DNA from: Eubacteriales bacterium
Lineage (GTDB): Bacteria > Bacillota > Clostridia > Lachnospirales > Lachnospiraceae
Length of the DNA stretch: 64,000 nt
Reading direction: 5' to 3'
NCBI GenBank assembly: GCA_030524745.1
Contig: JAUNGC010000019.1
Location: 1-64,000, forward strand
The position numbers and the translations under genes are program-made. Positions within the stretch are counted from its first letter, which is position 1. The number at the start of each line of letters is the position of its first letter. The notes below the pieces were generated by a model, which was not told the DNA's origin, did no database searches, and saw nothing but the letters and a program-made list of their open reading frames with translations. Below, piece by piece: positions 57,699 through 61,249 of the stretch.

Positions 57699-57897
57699 AA
57701 ATTTCACCTCTTTGGTTCGTTTCTTTAAACCATTATACACTATAATTGAATAAAAATCTCATTGGGAAAGAAAATCGAGACGAACTTTTAAGTTATCGAA
57801 AAAAAGTGTTGAAAAATATTTTCAATTCCCTTACGCTGTTTGTGGATGTATTATCCGCCGTTTACAGGATGTAATAAGCGACAGAATGGAGTTTGGT

Positions 57898-60063
57898 ATG
57901 GAAAAAAGAGATATTCCCGTTGAGTCATTGGAACAGGATGAATTTGGCATTGGCAGATATGTAAAAGCATTATGTAAATTTATCCGCGACAGTGACACGC
58001 CGATGACAATAGCGCTTCAGGGGGAGTGGGGAAGCGGAAAAACGTCATTTATGAAAATGATAGAGACCTCTTTGTGCTCTGCGGAACTGCCGCAGGAAGA
58101 CAGGTATGATTCGATCTGGCTGCATACATGGGATCTATTTCTGGAAAACGACTATGACACAGCGGTAAAAAAACTGATTACAAGTCTGTTTTCACAGATG
58201 GAAGAACATTTTGACACGCTTCACTCAAAGCAGAAAAGCGAACAGCGGATCAAACTGATGAAGGAATATGTGAAAGGAATTTCCAGCATGATGCTGACGG
58301 CGGTCAATGTGGAACTGGAAGCGTCGGGGAAGGTGCTGGATCAGATATTCGGCGGGAACAGCACCGCGTCTGTCAGAAAGCTGAAACGTGATTTTGAGAA
58401 TTACGTGGTGCGCGAGGTGAATGAGCGCGATAACGGCGTGACGGATCAGGCGTTTTTGATATTTGTGGATGATCTGGACCGTCTGGAGCCAAGGATGGCG
58501 GTCACTCTTTTAGAAGCGCTGAAAAATTTATTCGATATTGAAAAATGCATTTTTATTCTGTCCATCGATTATGATGTGGTGGCGATGGGAATTGAGCAGA
58601 AATATGGCGTGAGTACGCTGGTGAACCGCAATATCGGGCAGGACTTTTTTGACAAACTGATTCAGGTCCCCTATGTGCTTCCGGTGGCGAAATACGACAT
58701 CAGCGATATGGTTATGAGCCGCCTGAAGGAGATTGGTTTTTTCGAGCGGGAATATGATTATGTAAAATATGAAGGGAAGATCGTGGAAATTGTCCAGCTT
58801 GCGACCAACAAAAATCCGAGAGCCATTAAGCGGCTGCTGAACATGATCCATCTTCTTACCGCTATGGAGATCGGGGAAGCGGGACGTCATGCAGAACTTC
58901 GGATGATGGAAATTCTGTTGATGGCGCTGCAGATGACGTTTCCCAAGGTCTATAACATGCTGGCCCGCAATAACAATCTGGATACATGGAAGCGCAGATT
59001 CCATGTGCCCGATTCGCAGGCGGCAATTTCGGATCATATCCGCCAACAATACGATCTGGACGAGGAATGGAAGGAAATTATTTATCTGACAGTTGCGCAG
59101 GATGAAGTGATTCGCCGCAATTATTACCGGATCGCCCGCCTGCTTGAAATTTATGAGAATTTGCAGGACCGGTGTCACCGGGTTGGGGAACGCGTGGAGG
59201 ATGCGCTGGGAATTGTGAATGTGATGTGCATGAACAATGACAACCAGAATGCGGTGAAGTATGACGGCGAAGCATATGACAAGTCCTCCCAGACACAGTA
59301 CAGGCAGGGCGCCCGGCTGGTAAATTCCATCGATTTCAGTTGCTATACAAACGTGCTGGATGTGGGATGCGGAAACGGGAGCACGACGCTGGATATGTGG
59401 AACCAGAACCGGGATATGCACGTATTTGCGTTCGATCTGGCGGCAAGTCAGATCGACAAAGCGCGTGAGAAATATGAAGAGATCTTTTTAAAGGAAAATA
59501 CGGAGGAGTTTAAGGGCGATATTGATTTTGAAGTGATGAACGCCTTGGATCTGAAGGCAAAAGCGGAATATGATCTGGTGTTTTCCAACGCCACGCTGCA
59601 CTGGATAACGGATGAAAAGCGGATGTACAGCCTGCTTTTTGAAGCGTTGGAACCGGGCGGCACGCTTGCGGTGCATCAGGGCGGTTACGGCACGTATGCA
59701 GGGCTGCATCAGATGGCGCGCGACGCAATCAGGAATATCGGCCTGGAAGAGAAATTTAAGAGATGGATATTCCCGGCTTTTTATCCGAAAAAAGAAGAGA
59801 TGGAACTTTTGCTGAGAGAAATTGGCTTTACGGATATTAGAGTGGAAAGCGTATATTCGGATGAAAAGGACAATGAAAATCTGGTTGATAATTTTGCAAA
59901 AGCCAGCCTGATTTTCTACCGTCAGGCGGCGCTTACGGACGATGAATATGAAGCGCTGGAAGCAGAGTATTTCAGATTGTGCAAGACGGAACCGGTCAAC
60001 AAGTCCTCTCACCGGCTCTATATTTATGCGGAACGGCCGAAGGAAAAGCGGACTGCGGAATAA
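57898..60063 (+). CDS. KAP-family P-loop NTPase fused to a class I SAM methyltransferase
   Basis: 721 residues. The N-terminal 430 residues form a KAP-type NTPase: Walker A GEWGSGKTS (42-50), Walker B AFLIFVDDLDRL (185-196), FILSIDYDVVAMGIEQKYG, and NKNPRAIKRLLNMIH (304-318). A C-terminal methyltransferase of about 260 residues has VLDVGCGNG (486-494), VFAFDLAASQIDKARE, VFSNATLHWI and FEALEPGGTLAV, close to BioC/Tam-like enzymes. The second ATG (57898) has GGAG 6 bp upstream and is preferred over 57886. KAP NTPases are linked to membrane complexes and phage defence; this fusion is unknown to me. Confidence 0.82.
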   Translation: MEKRDIPVESLEQDEFGIGRYVKALCKFIRDSDTPMTIALQGEWGSGKTSFMKMIETSLCSAELPQEDRYDSIWLHTWDLFLENDYDTAVKKLITSLFSQMEEHFDTLHSKQKSEQRIKLMKEYVKGISSMMLTAVNVELEASGKVLDQIFGGNSTASVRKLKRDFENYVVREVNERDNGVTDQAFLIFVDDLDRLEPRMAVTLLEALKNLFDIEKCIFILSIDYDVVAMGIEQKYGVSTLVNRNIGQDFFDKLIQVPYVLPVAKYDISDMVMSRLKEIGFFEREYDYVKYEGKIVEIVQLATNKNPRAIKRLLNMIHLLTAMEIGEAGRHAELRMMEILLMALQMTFPKVYNMLARNNNLDTWKRRFHVPDSQAAISDHIRQQYDLDEEWKEIIYLTVAQDEVIRRNYYRIARLLEIYENLQDRCHRVGERVEDALGIVNVMCMNNDNQNAVKYDGEAYDKSSQTQYRQGARLVNSIDFSCYTNVLDVGCGNGSTTLDMWNQNRDMHVFAFDLAASQIDKAREKYEEIFLKENTEEFKGDIDFEVMNALDLKAKAEYDLVFSNATLHWITDEKRMYSLLFEALEPGGTLAVHQGGYGTYAGLHQMARDAIRNIGLEEKFKRWIFPAFYPKKEEMELLLREIGFTDIRVESVYSDEKDNENLVDNFAKASLIFYRQAALTDDEYEALEAEYFRLCKTEPVNKSSHRLYIYAERPKEKRTAE

Positions 60064-60122: not shown

Positions 60123-60674
60123 ATGAAAGTGAGATATAAAGGGAATATTCTGAATGAGACGGAAAAAGATGCTATCTGGGAAATTTTATGTCAGTGCGAC
60201 GAGGAATTTTATCCTCCGCTTTCTGCAAGAAACAGTTCTTCCCAAAAACAGTTGAAGGCAGAGGACGGCGGCAGCATGGTACAGACGCAAAAACCTGTTG
60301 CATATTTCGAGGAGATGATCCGGCAGGATTTTCTGTTGGCATATGACGAAAGCGAACGGATCGTGGGATTTATGACCTTTAAGAAGGATTATATATGCGA
60401 GAGTCTGGAGAAATTCGGGAAATCGCTCTATATTACGACCATCTGCGTGCGGAACGAATGCAGGGGGAAAAATATTTTGGGCATGATGTATGAACATATG
60501 GAAGATGAAGTGACAAAGCAGTGTGACTGTCCGCGCATTTCCACGAGGACCTGGTCTTTGAACACAGCGCATATGCATGGACTGGCGAGAAGAGGATATG
60601 AAGTCCTGGATGTACTGAAGGACGACCGGGGAAAGGGCGTGGATACCATATATTATGGAAAAAGCTGCGAATAA
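60123..60674 (+). CDS. GNAT acetyltransferase
   Basis: 183 residues. FLLAYDESERIVGFMTFKK and the acetyl-CoA motif ICVRNECRGKNILGMMYEHM (the R-x2-G-x-G/A type turn) followed by STRTWSLNTAHMHGLARRGYEVLDVLKDDRG support the fold. GAAGGAAA precedes ATG 60123, 59 bp after the NTPase-methyltransferase gene. Target unknown; it could modify a small molecule, a toxin or a protein. It is probably co-transcribed with both neighbours. Confidence 0.8.
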   Translation: MKVRYKGNILNETEKDAIWEILCQCDEEFYPPLSARNSSSQKQLKAEDGGSMVQTQKPVAYFEEMIRQDFLLAYDESERIVGFMTFKKDYICESLEKFGKSLYITTICVRNECRGKNILGMMYEHMEDEVTKQCDCPRISTRTWSLNTAHMHGLARRGYEVLDVLKDDRGKGVDTIYYGKSCE

Positions 60675-60685
60675 GAGGCGTATCG

Positions 60686-61249
60686 ATGGCGATAGAAATG
60701 GGGGCCGCCTGTATGGAAATGCAGATGTTATCAAAATCCCATAAAGTGACCAGACTGGGAGAACAGGATATTCCGGCGGTATTTGAGTTTTGCCGGAAGA
60801 ATCCGCGCTACTACCAATATTGTCCGCCGGAGGTCAGCCCGGAGGGAATCAAAGCGGATATGCGCGCTTTACCGGAGGGGAAAAGCATAGAGGATAAATT
60901 TTATCTGGGATTCTGGGCGGAAGATAAATTGGCGGCGGTTCTGGATCTGATCTTGAATTATCCGGATGATAAGACGGCGTTTATCGGCTTTTTTATGATG
61001 AATGCGGACATGCAGGGAAAAGGAACCGGATCGAAAATCATAGAAGAGATATGCGATTGTTTAGGGGAACCGTTTTCATTTGTCCGGTTGGGATATGTGA
61101 AGGGAAATGAGCAAAGCGAAAGGTTCTGGATGAAAAACGGTTTTCGGCCGATCGGGGAGATATCACAGACGGAGCACTGTGAAATTGTGGTAATGCAAAG
61201 AAAGCTGCGTCATGAAGAAACGGAGCGTTGGAGAAGGAGGAAACGATAA
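60686..61249 (+). CDS. GNAT acetyltransferase
   Basis: 187 residues. FYLGFWAEDKLAAVLDLILNYPDDKTAFIGFFMMNADMQGKGTGSKIIEEI has the QGKGTG acetyl-CoA loop, and VRLGYVKGNEQSERFWMKNGFRPIGE closes the domain. ATG 60686 follows AGAGG by 7 bp; several ATGs lie within the first 14 codons. The Arg-rich tail (EETERWRRRKR) is odd. It lies 11 bp after the previous gene and 1 bp before the PatB-like gene. Confidence 0.85.
   Translation: MAIEMGAACMEMQMLSKSHKVTRLGEQDIPAVFEFCRKNPRYYQYCPPEVSPEGIKADMRALPEGKSIEDKFYLGFWAEDKLAAVLDLILNYPDDKTAFIGFFMMNADMQGKGTGSKIIEEICDCLGEPFSFVRLGYVKGNEQSERFWMKNGFRPIGEISQTEHCEIVVMQRKLRHEETERWRRRKR

What the first reader, a model, noticed from the sequence alone, without database searches (positions are those of the whole stretch)
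57898..60063. KAP-family NTPase fused to a SAM methyltransferase
A single 721-residue frame joins an intact KAP P-loop NTPase (Walker A 42-50, Walker B 185-196, NKNPRAIKRLLN 304-315) to an intact class I methyltransferase (VLDVGCGNG 486-494, FSNATLHW). KAP NTPases are normally membrane-linked or found in phage-defence and conflict systems; I know of no described KAP-methyltransferase fusion of this form. The family's usual membrane helices are not seen within the NTPase domain, so this looks like a soluble variant. A nucleotide-driven methylation switch is possible.
Basis: partly seen in the sequence, partly recalled or inferred. Interest (0 to 1): 0.75.

Follow-up and report, generated by a model that had tools for sequence, protein, structure and literature searches.

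The report
NTPase-methyltransferase fusion with acetyltransferase partner
A gut bacterium carries an ATP-driven switch domain fused to a methylating enzyme and paired with an acetylating enzyme, a rare gene pair shared with other bacteria that looks like an undescribed module for chemically capping some carboxyl-bearing molecule on command.

Summary
In detail: one 721-residue frame (57898-60063, +) joins a KAP P-loop NTPase (Pfam 138 bits, cut-off 20) to a class I methyltransferase (57 bits, cut-off 27), with no predicted membrane helix. It is not an artefact: eleven loci, the ten others 35-71% identical to the window, encode the fusion.

In 11 of 11 loci a same-strand GNAT acetyltransferase follows within -11 to +59 bases, and it co-diverges with both fused domains. 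It is absent from 46 non-fusion loci.

One haloarchaeal plasmid carries the same kind of methyltransferase and GNAT, but there the methyltransferase is fused to a class III nucleotidyl cyclase. So methyltransferase plus GNAT may be the core, with an exchangeable nucleotide-handling front end.

Tyr460, Gln467, His568 and Trp569, conserved in 12 of 12, align with the carboxylate-binding residues of juvenile hormone acid methyltransferase, predicting carboxyl O-methylation.

Role: an NTP-gated modification module, possibly for conflict or stress. Four of 11 loci lie beside TIR, STAND or tubulin genes; seven, the window included, lie among ordinary genes. Substrate and trigger are unknown. No description was found in the papers searched.

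The parts
57898..60063 (+). KAP NTPase - methyltransferase fusion gene, 721 aa
   Evidence: Open frame; Pfam hits; 10 full-length relatives aligned with it
57888..57891 (+). GGAG, likely ribosome-binding site for the ATG at 57898
   Evidence: Read from the sequence; spacing 6 bases; inference
57958..58860 (+). KAP P-loop NTPase domain (residues 21-321)
   Evidence: PF07693, 138.2 bits, cut-off 20
58021..58047 (+). Walker A GEWGSGKTS (residues 42-50)
   Evidence: Position checked; G42, E43, W44, G45, G47, K48 and S50 invariant in 11 of 11
58450..58485 (+). Walker B region AFLIFVDDLDRL (residues 185-196)
   Evidence: Position checked; D191, D192, D194 and R195 invariant in 11 of 11
58933..59253 (+). 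Faster-evolving linker (residues 346-452) between NTPase and methyltransferase
   Evidence: Highest dN/dS of the fusion's segments in 3 of the 4 pairs where it could be computed (in one of these the methyltransferase value was saturated); shorter in L056-L059
59254..60039 (+). Class I methyltransferase domain (residues 453-714)
   Evidence: Pfam; profile matches include 3ccf, phosphoethanolamine, juvenile hormone acid, malonyl-ACP and trans-aconitate methyltransferases
59275..59298 (+). Tyr460 ... Gln467: predicted carboxylate-binding residues of the N-terminal helix
   Evidence: Align with Tyr7 and Gln14 of JHAMT; conserved 12 of 12
59353..59379 (+). SAM-binding motif I VLDVGCGNG (residues 486-494)
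   Evidence: Invariant in 11 of 11
59581..59604 (+). FSNATLHW (562-569) with His568-Trp569, predicted carboxylate-binding residues
   Evidence: Align with His115-Trp116 of JHAMT; conserved 12 of 12
59665..59682 (+). LAVHQG (590-595), signature of this methyltransferase clade
   Evidence: In 12 of 12 module enzymes and 0 of the 18 other methyltransferases aligned
60123..60674 (+). GNAT N-acetyltransferase, 183 aa, the conserved partner
   Evidence: PF00583 30.1 bits, cut-off 20.7; same-strand neighbour in 11 of 11 fusion loci

Best explanation
The window holds a two-gene operon encoding an NTP-gated modification module. Protein 1 is a KAP P-loop NTPase without membrane helices, a linker and, fused to it, a SAM-dependent methyltransferase whose active site looks built for a carboxylic acid. 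Protein 2 is a dedicated GNAT acetyltransferase. Most likely working: the KAP domain binds and hydrolyses ATP when it meets a trigger, changes shape or assembles, and so turns on or positions the methyltransferase. The methyltransferase esterifies a carboxylate, and the GNAT acetylates an amine of the same molecule or the next intermediate, so that both charged ends of an amino-acid- or peptide-like substrate are capped. The outcome would be neutralising a toxic or foreign molecule, or making or silencing a signal, in a conflict or stress response. Shown by sequence: the fusion, the GNAT neighbour in every fusion locus found, conserved catalytic motifs, co-divergence, sparse occurrence, and a cyclase in place of the NTPase in one archaeal plasmid. 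Inferred: ATP gating, carboxylate as the methyl acceptor, a shared substrate. Weakly supported: the conflict role.
For: Fusion in 11 loci. GNAT adjacent in 11 of 11 and absent from 46 fetched non-fusion loci at E 1e-3 (44 distinct places, many with only 1.5 kb flanks). Spacing -11 to +59 bases (the starts in L059 and L068 were uncertain, other ATG or GTG starts lie at 1 and 19-40 bases). Pairwise distances of KAP, methyltransferase and GNAT correlate at r 0.94-0.97, 0 of 2000 permutations as high; shared descent alone can give this. In a search of 392 order genomes, 7 of the 9 GNAT hits at E 1.3e-27 or better lie beside the fusion (sequences of those seven loci were in the profile). Fusion methyltransferases form one clade, 100/100, still 100/100 with the Halobellus enzyme inside (the tool warned of long branches). 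Halobellus limi: cyclase-methyltransferase fusion followed 2 bases later by the same GNAT family. Tyr/Gln/His/Trp conserved 12 of 12 and reported to hold the substrate carboxylate in JHAMT (PMC13223930, passages seen). dN/dS 0.03-0.12 for KAP and methyltransferase. KAP hits to PifA, PDC-S20 and QatA models. Four of 11 loci beside TIR, STAND or tubulin genes.
Against: Seven of 11 loci, the window included, lie among what read as ordinary genes (mostly judged by eye). No phage record held 80% of the fusion (6 partial matches) or the GNAT; viral-contig scans gave only KAP-part relatives and no GNAT, which lends nothing to an anti-phage role. Strong purifying selection is unlike a fast arms race. 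In five GNATs, the window's included, the usual glycine of the acetyl-CoA loop is Asn or His, so acetyltransferase activity is not certain. The Tyr/Gln/His/Trp set also occurs in 7 of 16 free-standing relatives, so it predicts chemistry but not a special role. Solved relatives include a tRNA carboxymethoxyuridine methyltransferase (8joz) and a PHROG labelled tRNA methyltransferase matches (E 1.2e-13), so a carboxyl group on tRNA is not excluded as substrate. The cyclase variant rests on one locus. The shared-substrate idea rests on operon structure alone.
Confidence: 0.5

Rival explanations
1. Anti-phage or inter-bacterial conflict system: KAP is a sensor of infection and the methyltransferase/GNAT pair the effector that inactivates a host or invader molecule.
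For: KAP matches PifA, PDC-S20 and QatA models; a KAP domain can displace STAND in counter-invader systems (PMC8195603, passage); a GCN5-like N-acetyltransferase is listed among effectors of NTP-dependent conflict systems (PMC7159879, passage); conflict-type neighbours in 4 of 11 loci; cyclase in Halobellus matches PycC models; sparse occurrence.
Against: 7 of 11 loci not beside such genes; no phage or viral record with the pair; low dN/dS.
Confidence: 0.3
2. Regulated small-molecule metabolism or self-protection: the pair detoxifies or builds an amino-acid-like metabolite, and KAP is an energy-dependent regulator or assembly factor.
For: Carboxyl-methyltransferase active site; a free-standing GNAT homologue lies downstream of genes that read as a peptide ABC transporter (by eye) and an M20 peptidase (Pfam) in G284; ordinary gene neighbours in 7 of 11 loci; purifying selection.
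Against: KAP NTPases are not known to me as parts of metabolic enzymes (recalled); neighbours are not conserved between lineages, so no pathway is visible; conflict-type neighbours in 4 of 11.
Confidence: 0.35
3. Macromolecule-modifying regulator: the methyltransferase and GNAT modify a protein end or a carboxyl-bearing tRNA base, with KAP as chaperone-like targeting ATPase.
For: Weak profile match of the GNAT to N-alpha-acetyltransferases (E 0.003-0.009); tRNA carboxymethoxyuridine methyltransferase among solved relatives (E 4.7e-10); tubulin-like partners at two loci.
Against: GNAT matches are weak and unspecific; the methyltransferase scores better against small-molecule enzymes.
Confidence: 0.15
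4. The fusion is a chance or assembly join, or the GNAT is an unrelated neighbour.
For: None found; many separate KAP and methyltransferase genes exist.
Against: 11 loci, 100/100 methyltransferase clade, 11 of 11 GNAT adjacency, co-divergence.
Confidence: 0.01

Closest known systems
KAP NTPase defence proteins (PifA, QatA, PDC-S20, Tmn)
   Same: Same P-loop family; PADLOC matches E 3e-32 (PifA), 1e-29 (PDC-S20), 3e-19 (QatA) in the NTPase part; Tmn is described as a KAP NTPase defence protein (PMC11846954, passage)
   Different: QatA equivalog score 72.6 against a cut-off of 600; those matches cover the NTPase part, not the methyltransferase; Tmn has two membrane segments, this has none predicted
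Carboxylic-acid O-methyltransferases (juvenile hormone acid methyltransferase JHAMT, BioC, trans-aconitate methyltransferase Tam)
   Same: Among the 40 solved relatives at E 1e-5, JHAMT ranking fourth; Tyr/Gln/His/Trp carboxylate set of JHAMT
   Different: Far below the BioC (73.5 against 184.95) and Tam (55.4 against 320) cut-offs; other enzyme types rank as high, e.g. phosphoethanolamine methyltransferases; own signature LAVHQG; fused to KAP or cyclase
NTP-dependent conflict systems of Kaur et al. 2020 (vWA, tubulin, GTPase, TIR)
   Same: In L033 and L054 the pair is followed by vWA-like and tubulin-like genes on the same strand; that paper lists a GCN5-like N-acetyltransferase among effectors (PMC7159879, passages)
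   Different: The word 'methyltransferase' does not occur in its main text; in the window genome the tubulin cluster is on another contig
Pycsar cyclases
   Same: The cyclase in front of the Halobellus methyltransferase matches PycC models, best E 1.5e-16
   Different: No Pycsar effector is annotated beside it; the window protein has no cyclase

Membership tests
KAP P-loop NTPase | Pfam KAP_NTPase profile above curated cut-off | tested here: met
   138.2 bits against 20
KAP P-loop NTPase | Walker A and Walker B intact | tested here: met
   Key residues invariant in 11 of 11
KAP P-loop NTPase | Membrane segments inserted in the NTPase domain (typical; I recall it is not universal) | tested here: not met
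   Max 19-residue hydropathy 1.36-1.91 in 11 fusions, controls 3.0-3.2
Carboxylic-acid O-methyltransferase | Class I SAM methyltransferase profile | tested here: met
   57.4 bits against 27
Carboxylic-acid O-methyltransferase | Tyr, Gln, His, Trp at the JHAMT carboxylate-binding positions | tested here: met
   12 of 12; residue roles from PMC13223930 (passages)
Carboxylic-acid O-methyltransferase | Methyl ester product | not testable with these tools
   Needs enzyme assay
BioC or Tam equivalog | NCBIfam equivalog cut-off | tested here: not met
   73.5 against 184.95; 55.4 against 320
GNAT acetyltransferase | Pfam Acetyltransf_1 above cut-off | tested here: met
   30.1 against 20.7
GNAT acetyltransferase | Arg-x-x-Gly acetyl-CoA loop (motif recalled) | tested here: inconclusive
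   Arg 11 of 11; Gly 6 of 11, Asn or His in 5 including the window
Qat anti-phage system | QatA equivalog cut-off | tested here: not met
   72.6 against 600
vWA/tubulin conflict system (Kaur 2020) | Gene linkage to vWA and tubulin genes | tested here: inconclusive
Anti-phage defence system | Protection against phage | not testable with these tools
   Needs plaque assays

The most novel reading that the evidence does not exclude
A new kind of two-gene switchable double-capping system, shared by bacteria and archaea: a carboxyl methyltransferase and a GNAT act as a pair on one zwitterionic small molecule, and the methyltransferase carries an exchangeable nucleotide-handling front end (KAP NTPase in Clostridia, class III cyclase in a haloarchaeon) that decides when capping occurs.
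Probability: 0.3. Interest if true: 0.85.

Novelty: new variant of a known kind. Interest (0 to 1): 0.6.

Why it matters
If right, it adds an effector chemistry (carboxyl methylation coupled to acetylation) to the NTP-controlled modular systems of prokaryotes. It is a compact two-protein target for biochemistry, with a concrete residue-level prediction (Gln467, His568, Trp569), and it raises the question of which carboxylic acid needs to be capped on command in Clostridia and in a haloarchaeon. It also corrects the unit of study: the pair, not the fusion alone.

Tried and rejected
DNA-base methylation (restriction or BREX-like): not favoured, because the motif IV position reads FSNATLHW rather than the DPPY/NPPY-like motif I recall for amino-methylating DNA enzymes, and most named solved relatives act on small molecules. 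tRNA is not excluded: 8joz, a tRNA 5-carboxymethoxyuridine methyltransferase, is among the hits (E 4.7e-10), and phrog_4752, labelled tRNA methyltransferase, matches (E 1.2e-13). The PADLOC mad2 hit (E 4.5e-18) covers only the SAM core (484-618) and is no better than the BioC hit (E 2.2e-20), so I did not follow it.

Sulfuricurvum LeuA-like/methyltransferase fusion (L113): rejected as a module member; it groups with free-standing enzymes, has Val at the Gln467 position and lacks LAVHQG. TIR-methyltransferase L118: rejected likewise (lacks Gln467, Trp569 and LAVHQG).

Defence-island claim for the window itself: rejected; the predicted genes read as ordinary chromosomal genes (by eye; Pfam only for three). 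The link to vWA/tubulin systems is left open: 4 of 9 fusion genomes have Tubulin_2, all four from the window's family and none of the five others, but the family's background rate could not be measured. The label 'vWA-like' rests on my reading (DNSGSMY near the N-terminus) and on synteny; Pfam gave no hit for two of these proteins. 'Channel-like' rests on a Pfam hit below its cut-off for the L119 copy (20.2 against 26.7); the L033 copy had none. The short TIR-like frame of L033 also had no Pfam hit.

Scans without yield: viral contigs with the fusion (5 KAP-part relatives), with the GNAT (0 relatives) and with the methyltransferase (18 generic ones); these scans work from short peptide patterns and can miss relatives. 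Solved structures for KAP: 0 at E 0.01. Paper searches: KAP NTPase with methyltransferase and GNAT (0 papers), KAP-family fusion terms (7), conflict-system terms (6; 2), 'KAP NTPase' (12), KAP family with phage and defense (3), the 2004 family title (21, 8 listed), cyclase/GNAT terms (2). I saw listings only, except passages of PMC8195603, PMC7159879, PMC11846954 and PMC13223930 (the last found by a JHAMT search). None of this proves absence from print; the 2004 KAP family paper is not held.

The KAP tree gave a weaker result (fusion clade 79/55, with the KAP-only L034 joining at the same unresolved node) than the methyltransferase tree (100/100), so a single fusion event is likely but not proved from the KAP side.
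Full report
What is there. Window 57898-60063 (+) encodes 721 residues without a break. Pfam finds KAP_NTPase at 21-321 (138.2 bits, cut-off 20) and several class I methyltransferase models at about 484-647 (best Methyltransf_25, 57.4 bits, cut-off 27). No segment is hydrophobic enough for a membrane helix: highest 19-residue mean 1.41 here and 1.36-1.91 across 11 fusions, against 3.0-3.2 in two membrane proteins from L033. One match was found in its own genome.

It is a real family. G710 carries the same contig as L032 (same length, 60,076 bases, and same match position), so there are 11 loci counting the window; L031 and L032 are near-copies (dN 0.004 in KAP). Identity to the window is 35-71%. 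The searches, full-length fusions only, the window's own genome counted each time: 2 of 397 family genomes, 7 of 392 order genomes, 2 of 391 class genomes and 1 of 398 phylum genomes; the samples overlap and only the best candidates of each genome were scored. G430 and G510 were reported in two pieces but within one open frame each (693 and 704 aa). The single TGA noted in the G154 and G868 matches is compatible with the gene's own stop, since the frames are open to that point. Mediterraneibacter is in Lachnospiraceae, and G710 is of the window's family, so the window is taken as lachnospiraceal.

The partner. A GNAT gene (window 60123-60674, Pfam Acetyltransf_1 30.1 bits, cut-off 20.7) lies directly downstream on the same strand in all 11 loci. 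The distance from stop to start is 59 bases in the window, -11 in three, and 1 to 52 in the others; for L059 and L068 the start is uncertain, with other in-frame ATG or GTG starts at 1 and at 19-40 bases. The same GNAT query gave no hit at E 1e-3 in the 46 fetched loci that hold only a KAP or only a methyltransferase (44 distinct places, many with only 1.5 kb on each side). Identity distances over the 11 loci correlate at r 0.970 (KAP-methyltransferase), 0.943 (KAP-GNAT) and 0.957 (methyltransferase-GNAT), with 0 of 2000 permutations as high; this is what shared descent as a unit gives, and near-copies help it. Searching 392 order genomes with the GNAT profile gave 7 hits at E 6.8e-84 or better, all beside the fusion (the profile contains sequences of these loci), then one free-standing copy (G284, E 1e-55) and one in a frame with a NERD-like region (G398, E 1.3e-27), then hits at E 9e-12 or weaker. 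The second GNAT of the window (60686-61249) has no relative at E 1e-3 in the other fusion loci.

Selection and descent. dN/dS for KAP and methyltransferase is 0.03-0.12 in the pairs where it could be computed; the linker is looser (0.07-0.21) and the GNAT 0.09-0.33 (saturated pairs gave no value). Fusion methyltransferases form one clade against 16 free-standing relatives, 100/100 (the tool warned of long branches). The KAP parts are less decisive: 79/55, with the KAP-only protein L034, which matches to residue 441 and ends about where the methyltransferase begins, joining them at an unresolved node. In the KAP tree G868, of another order, groups with L033 and the window's family at 97/98, apart from order-mates G416, G430, G496 and G510; the methyltransferase tree gives 85/79, and with Halobellus added the point is unresolved. 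With the sparse occurrence this suggests horizontal spread.

The front end may be exchangeable. A protein search of 72,556 plasmid records with the GNAT gave two hits, both haloarchaeal. In Halobellus limi plasmid NZ_CP031312.1 the GNAT (36.6% identity) starts 2 bases after a 520-residue gene whose methyltransferase falls with the fusion clade, 100/100 (on a long branch), and carries its LAVHQG signature, but whose N-terminus is a class III nucleotidyl cyclase (Guanylate_cyc 43.6 bits, cut-off 21.9; PycC models, best E 1.5e-16). The other hit, Haloarcula marina, is a GNAT with a stop in frame and no methyltransferase recognised beside it. So methyltransferase plus GNAT looks like the conserved core and the KAP one of two nucleotide-handling front ends seen; the second rests on a single locus.

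Chemistry. The methyltransferase profile matches 40 solved sequences at E 1e-5, best 3ccf, then phosphoethanolamine methyltransferases, 3mgg and juvenile hormone acid methyltransferases; BioC, trans-aconitate enzymes and a tRNA carboxymethoxyuridine methyltransferase (8joz) are among them. In the alignment with JHAMT, Tyr460, Gln467, His568 and Trp569 fall on Tyr7, Gln14, His115 and Trp116 (my count; numbering offset by three residues in that chain). The JHAMT paper reports that these four contact the substrate's carboxylate and that Gln14 mutants are inactive (PMC13223930, passages read). All four are present in 12 of 12 module enzymes; 7 of 16 free-standing relatives have all four as well, eight lack the Gln and one has Gln for the His. 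The enzyme is far below the BioC and Tam equivalog cut-offs. I therefore predict carboxyl O-methylation of an unidentified acid, free or carried on a larger molecule. The GNAT's acetyl-CoA loop keeps its Arg in 11 of 11, but the following Gly is Asn or His in five, the window included, a point against taking its activity for granted.

Setting. In L032 a TIR-HD protein precedes the pair, with a DUF4062-AAA(STAND-like)-TPR protein and a second TIR protein downstream. L031, a 3.7 kb contig, holds the last 309 residues of the same TIR-HD protein (98% identical) before the pair. In L033 and L054 vWA-like (by eye) and tubulin-like genes follow on the same strand, and L054 has a TIR protein on the other side. 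In L033 the pair sits between a channel-like gene and the vWA-like gene; the window's genome has the same channel-vWA-tubulin row on contig C56 (tubulin 82%, vWA-like 56%, channel-like 49% identity) without the pair between them. Kaur et al. 2020 describe vWA/tubulin neighbourhoods in Firmicutes among conflict systems and list a GCN5-like N-acetyltransferase among effectors (PMC7159879, passages); Kaur et al. 2021 note KAP displacing STAND in counter-invader systems (PMC8195603, passage). The other seven loci, the window included, lie among genes that read as ordinary and differ between lineages; in the window these are an ArsR-like regulator and a nitroreductase-like gene upstream and a second GNAT, an aminotransferase and AzlCD-like genes downstream (labels partly by eye). 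No phage record held 80% of the fusion, and none held the GNAT.

Reading. The strongest claims are that the fusion is real, that it goes with the GNAT, and that the methyltransferase has a carboxylate-type active site. That ATP controls methylation is the natural reading of the architecture but untested. A conflict role is plausible (0.3) and a regulated metabolic or protective role about as likely (0.35). No structure could be predicted, so the interface and active site rest on alignments. Paper searches found no description of the pair (listings seen, four papers opened for passages).

Noticed in passing
L118 3311-4717 (G696): A 469-residue protein with a class I methyltransferase and an N-terminal TIR-like part (TIR_2 21.2 bits, below its cut-off of 28), about 13 kb from the KAP-MT/GNAT pair; its methyltransferase lacks the LAVHQG signature.
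   Followed up: partly
L119 6130-14427 (window genome, contig C56): Channel-like (CASTOR/POLLUX hit below cut-off), vWA-like and Tubulin_2 genes in a row; the same row in L033 has the KAP-MT/GNAT pair between the channel-like and vWA-like genes.
   Followed up: partly
L113 3963-6014: Sulfuricurvum plasmid gene fusing a 2-isopropylmalate-synthase-like enzyme to a Tam/BioC-like methyltransferase, with NTF2-like, GNAT and serine hydroxymethyltransferase genes nearby; may be a biosynthetic cluster.
   Followed up: partly
L087 5523-6806 (G398): A distant copy of the GNAT fused behind a NERD-like region (Pfam NERD E 0.004, below cut-off).
   Followed up: no
L086 9291-9986 (G284): Free-standing copy of the GNAT downstream of genes that read as a peptide ABC transporter, an M20 peptidase (Pfam) and a CapA-like protein, a hint that its substrate may be peptide- or amino-acid-like.
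   Followed up: partly
L034 7842-9593: Candidatus Anaerobiospirillum KAP protein that matches the fusion through the linker to residue 441 and ends about where the methyltransferase would start.
   Followed up: partly
60686-61249: A second GNAT gene follows the partner GNAT in the window; it has no relative at E 1e-3 in the other fusion loci.
   Followed up: yes
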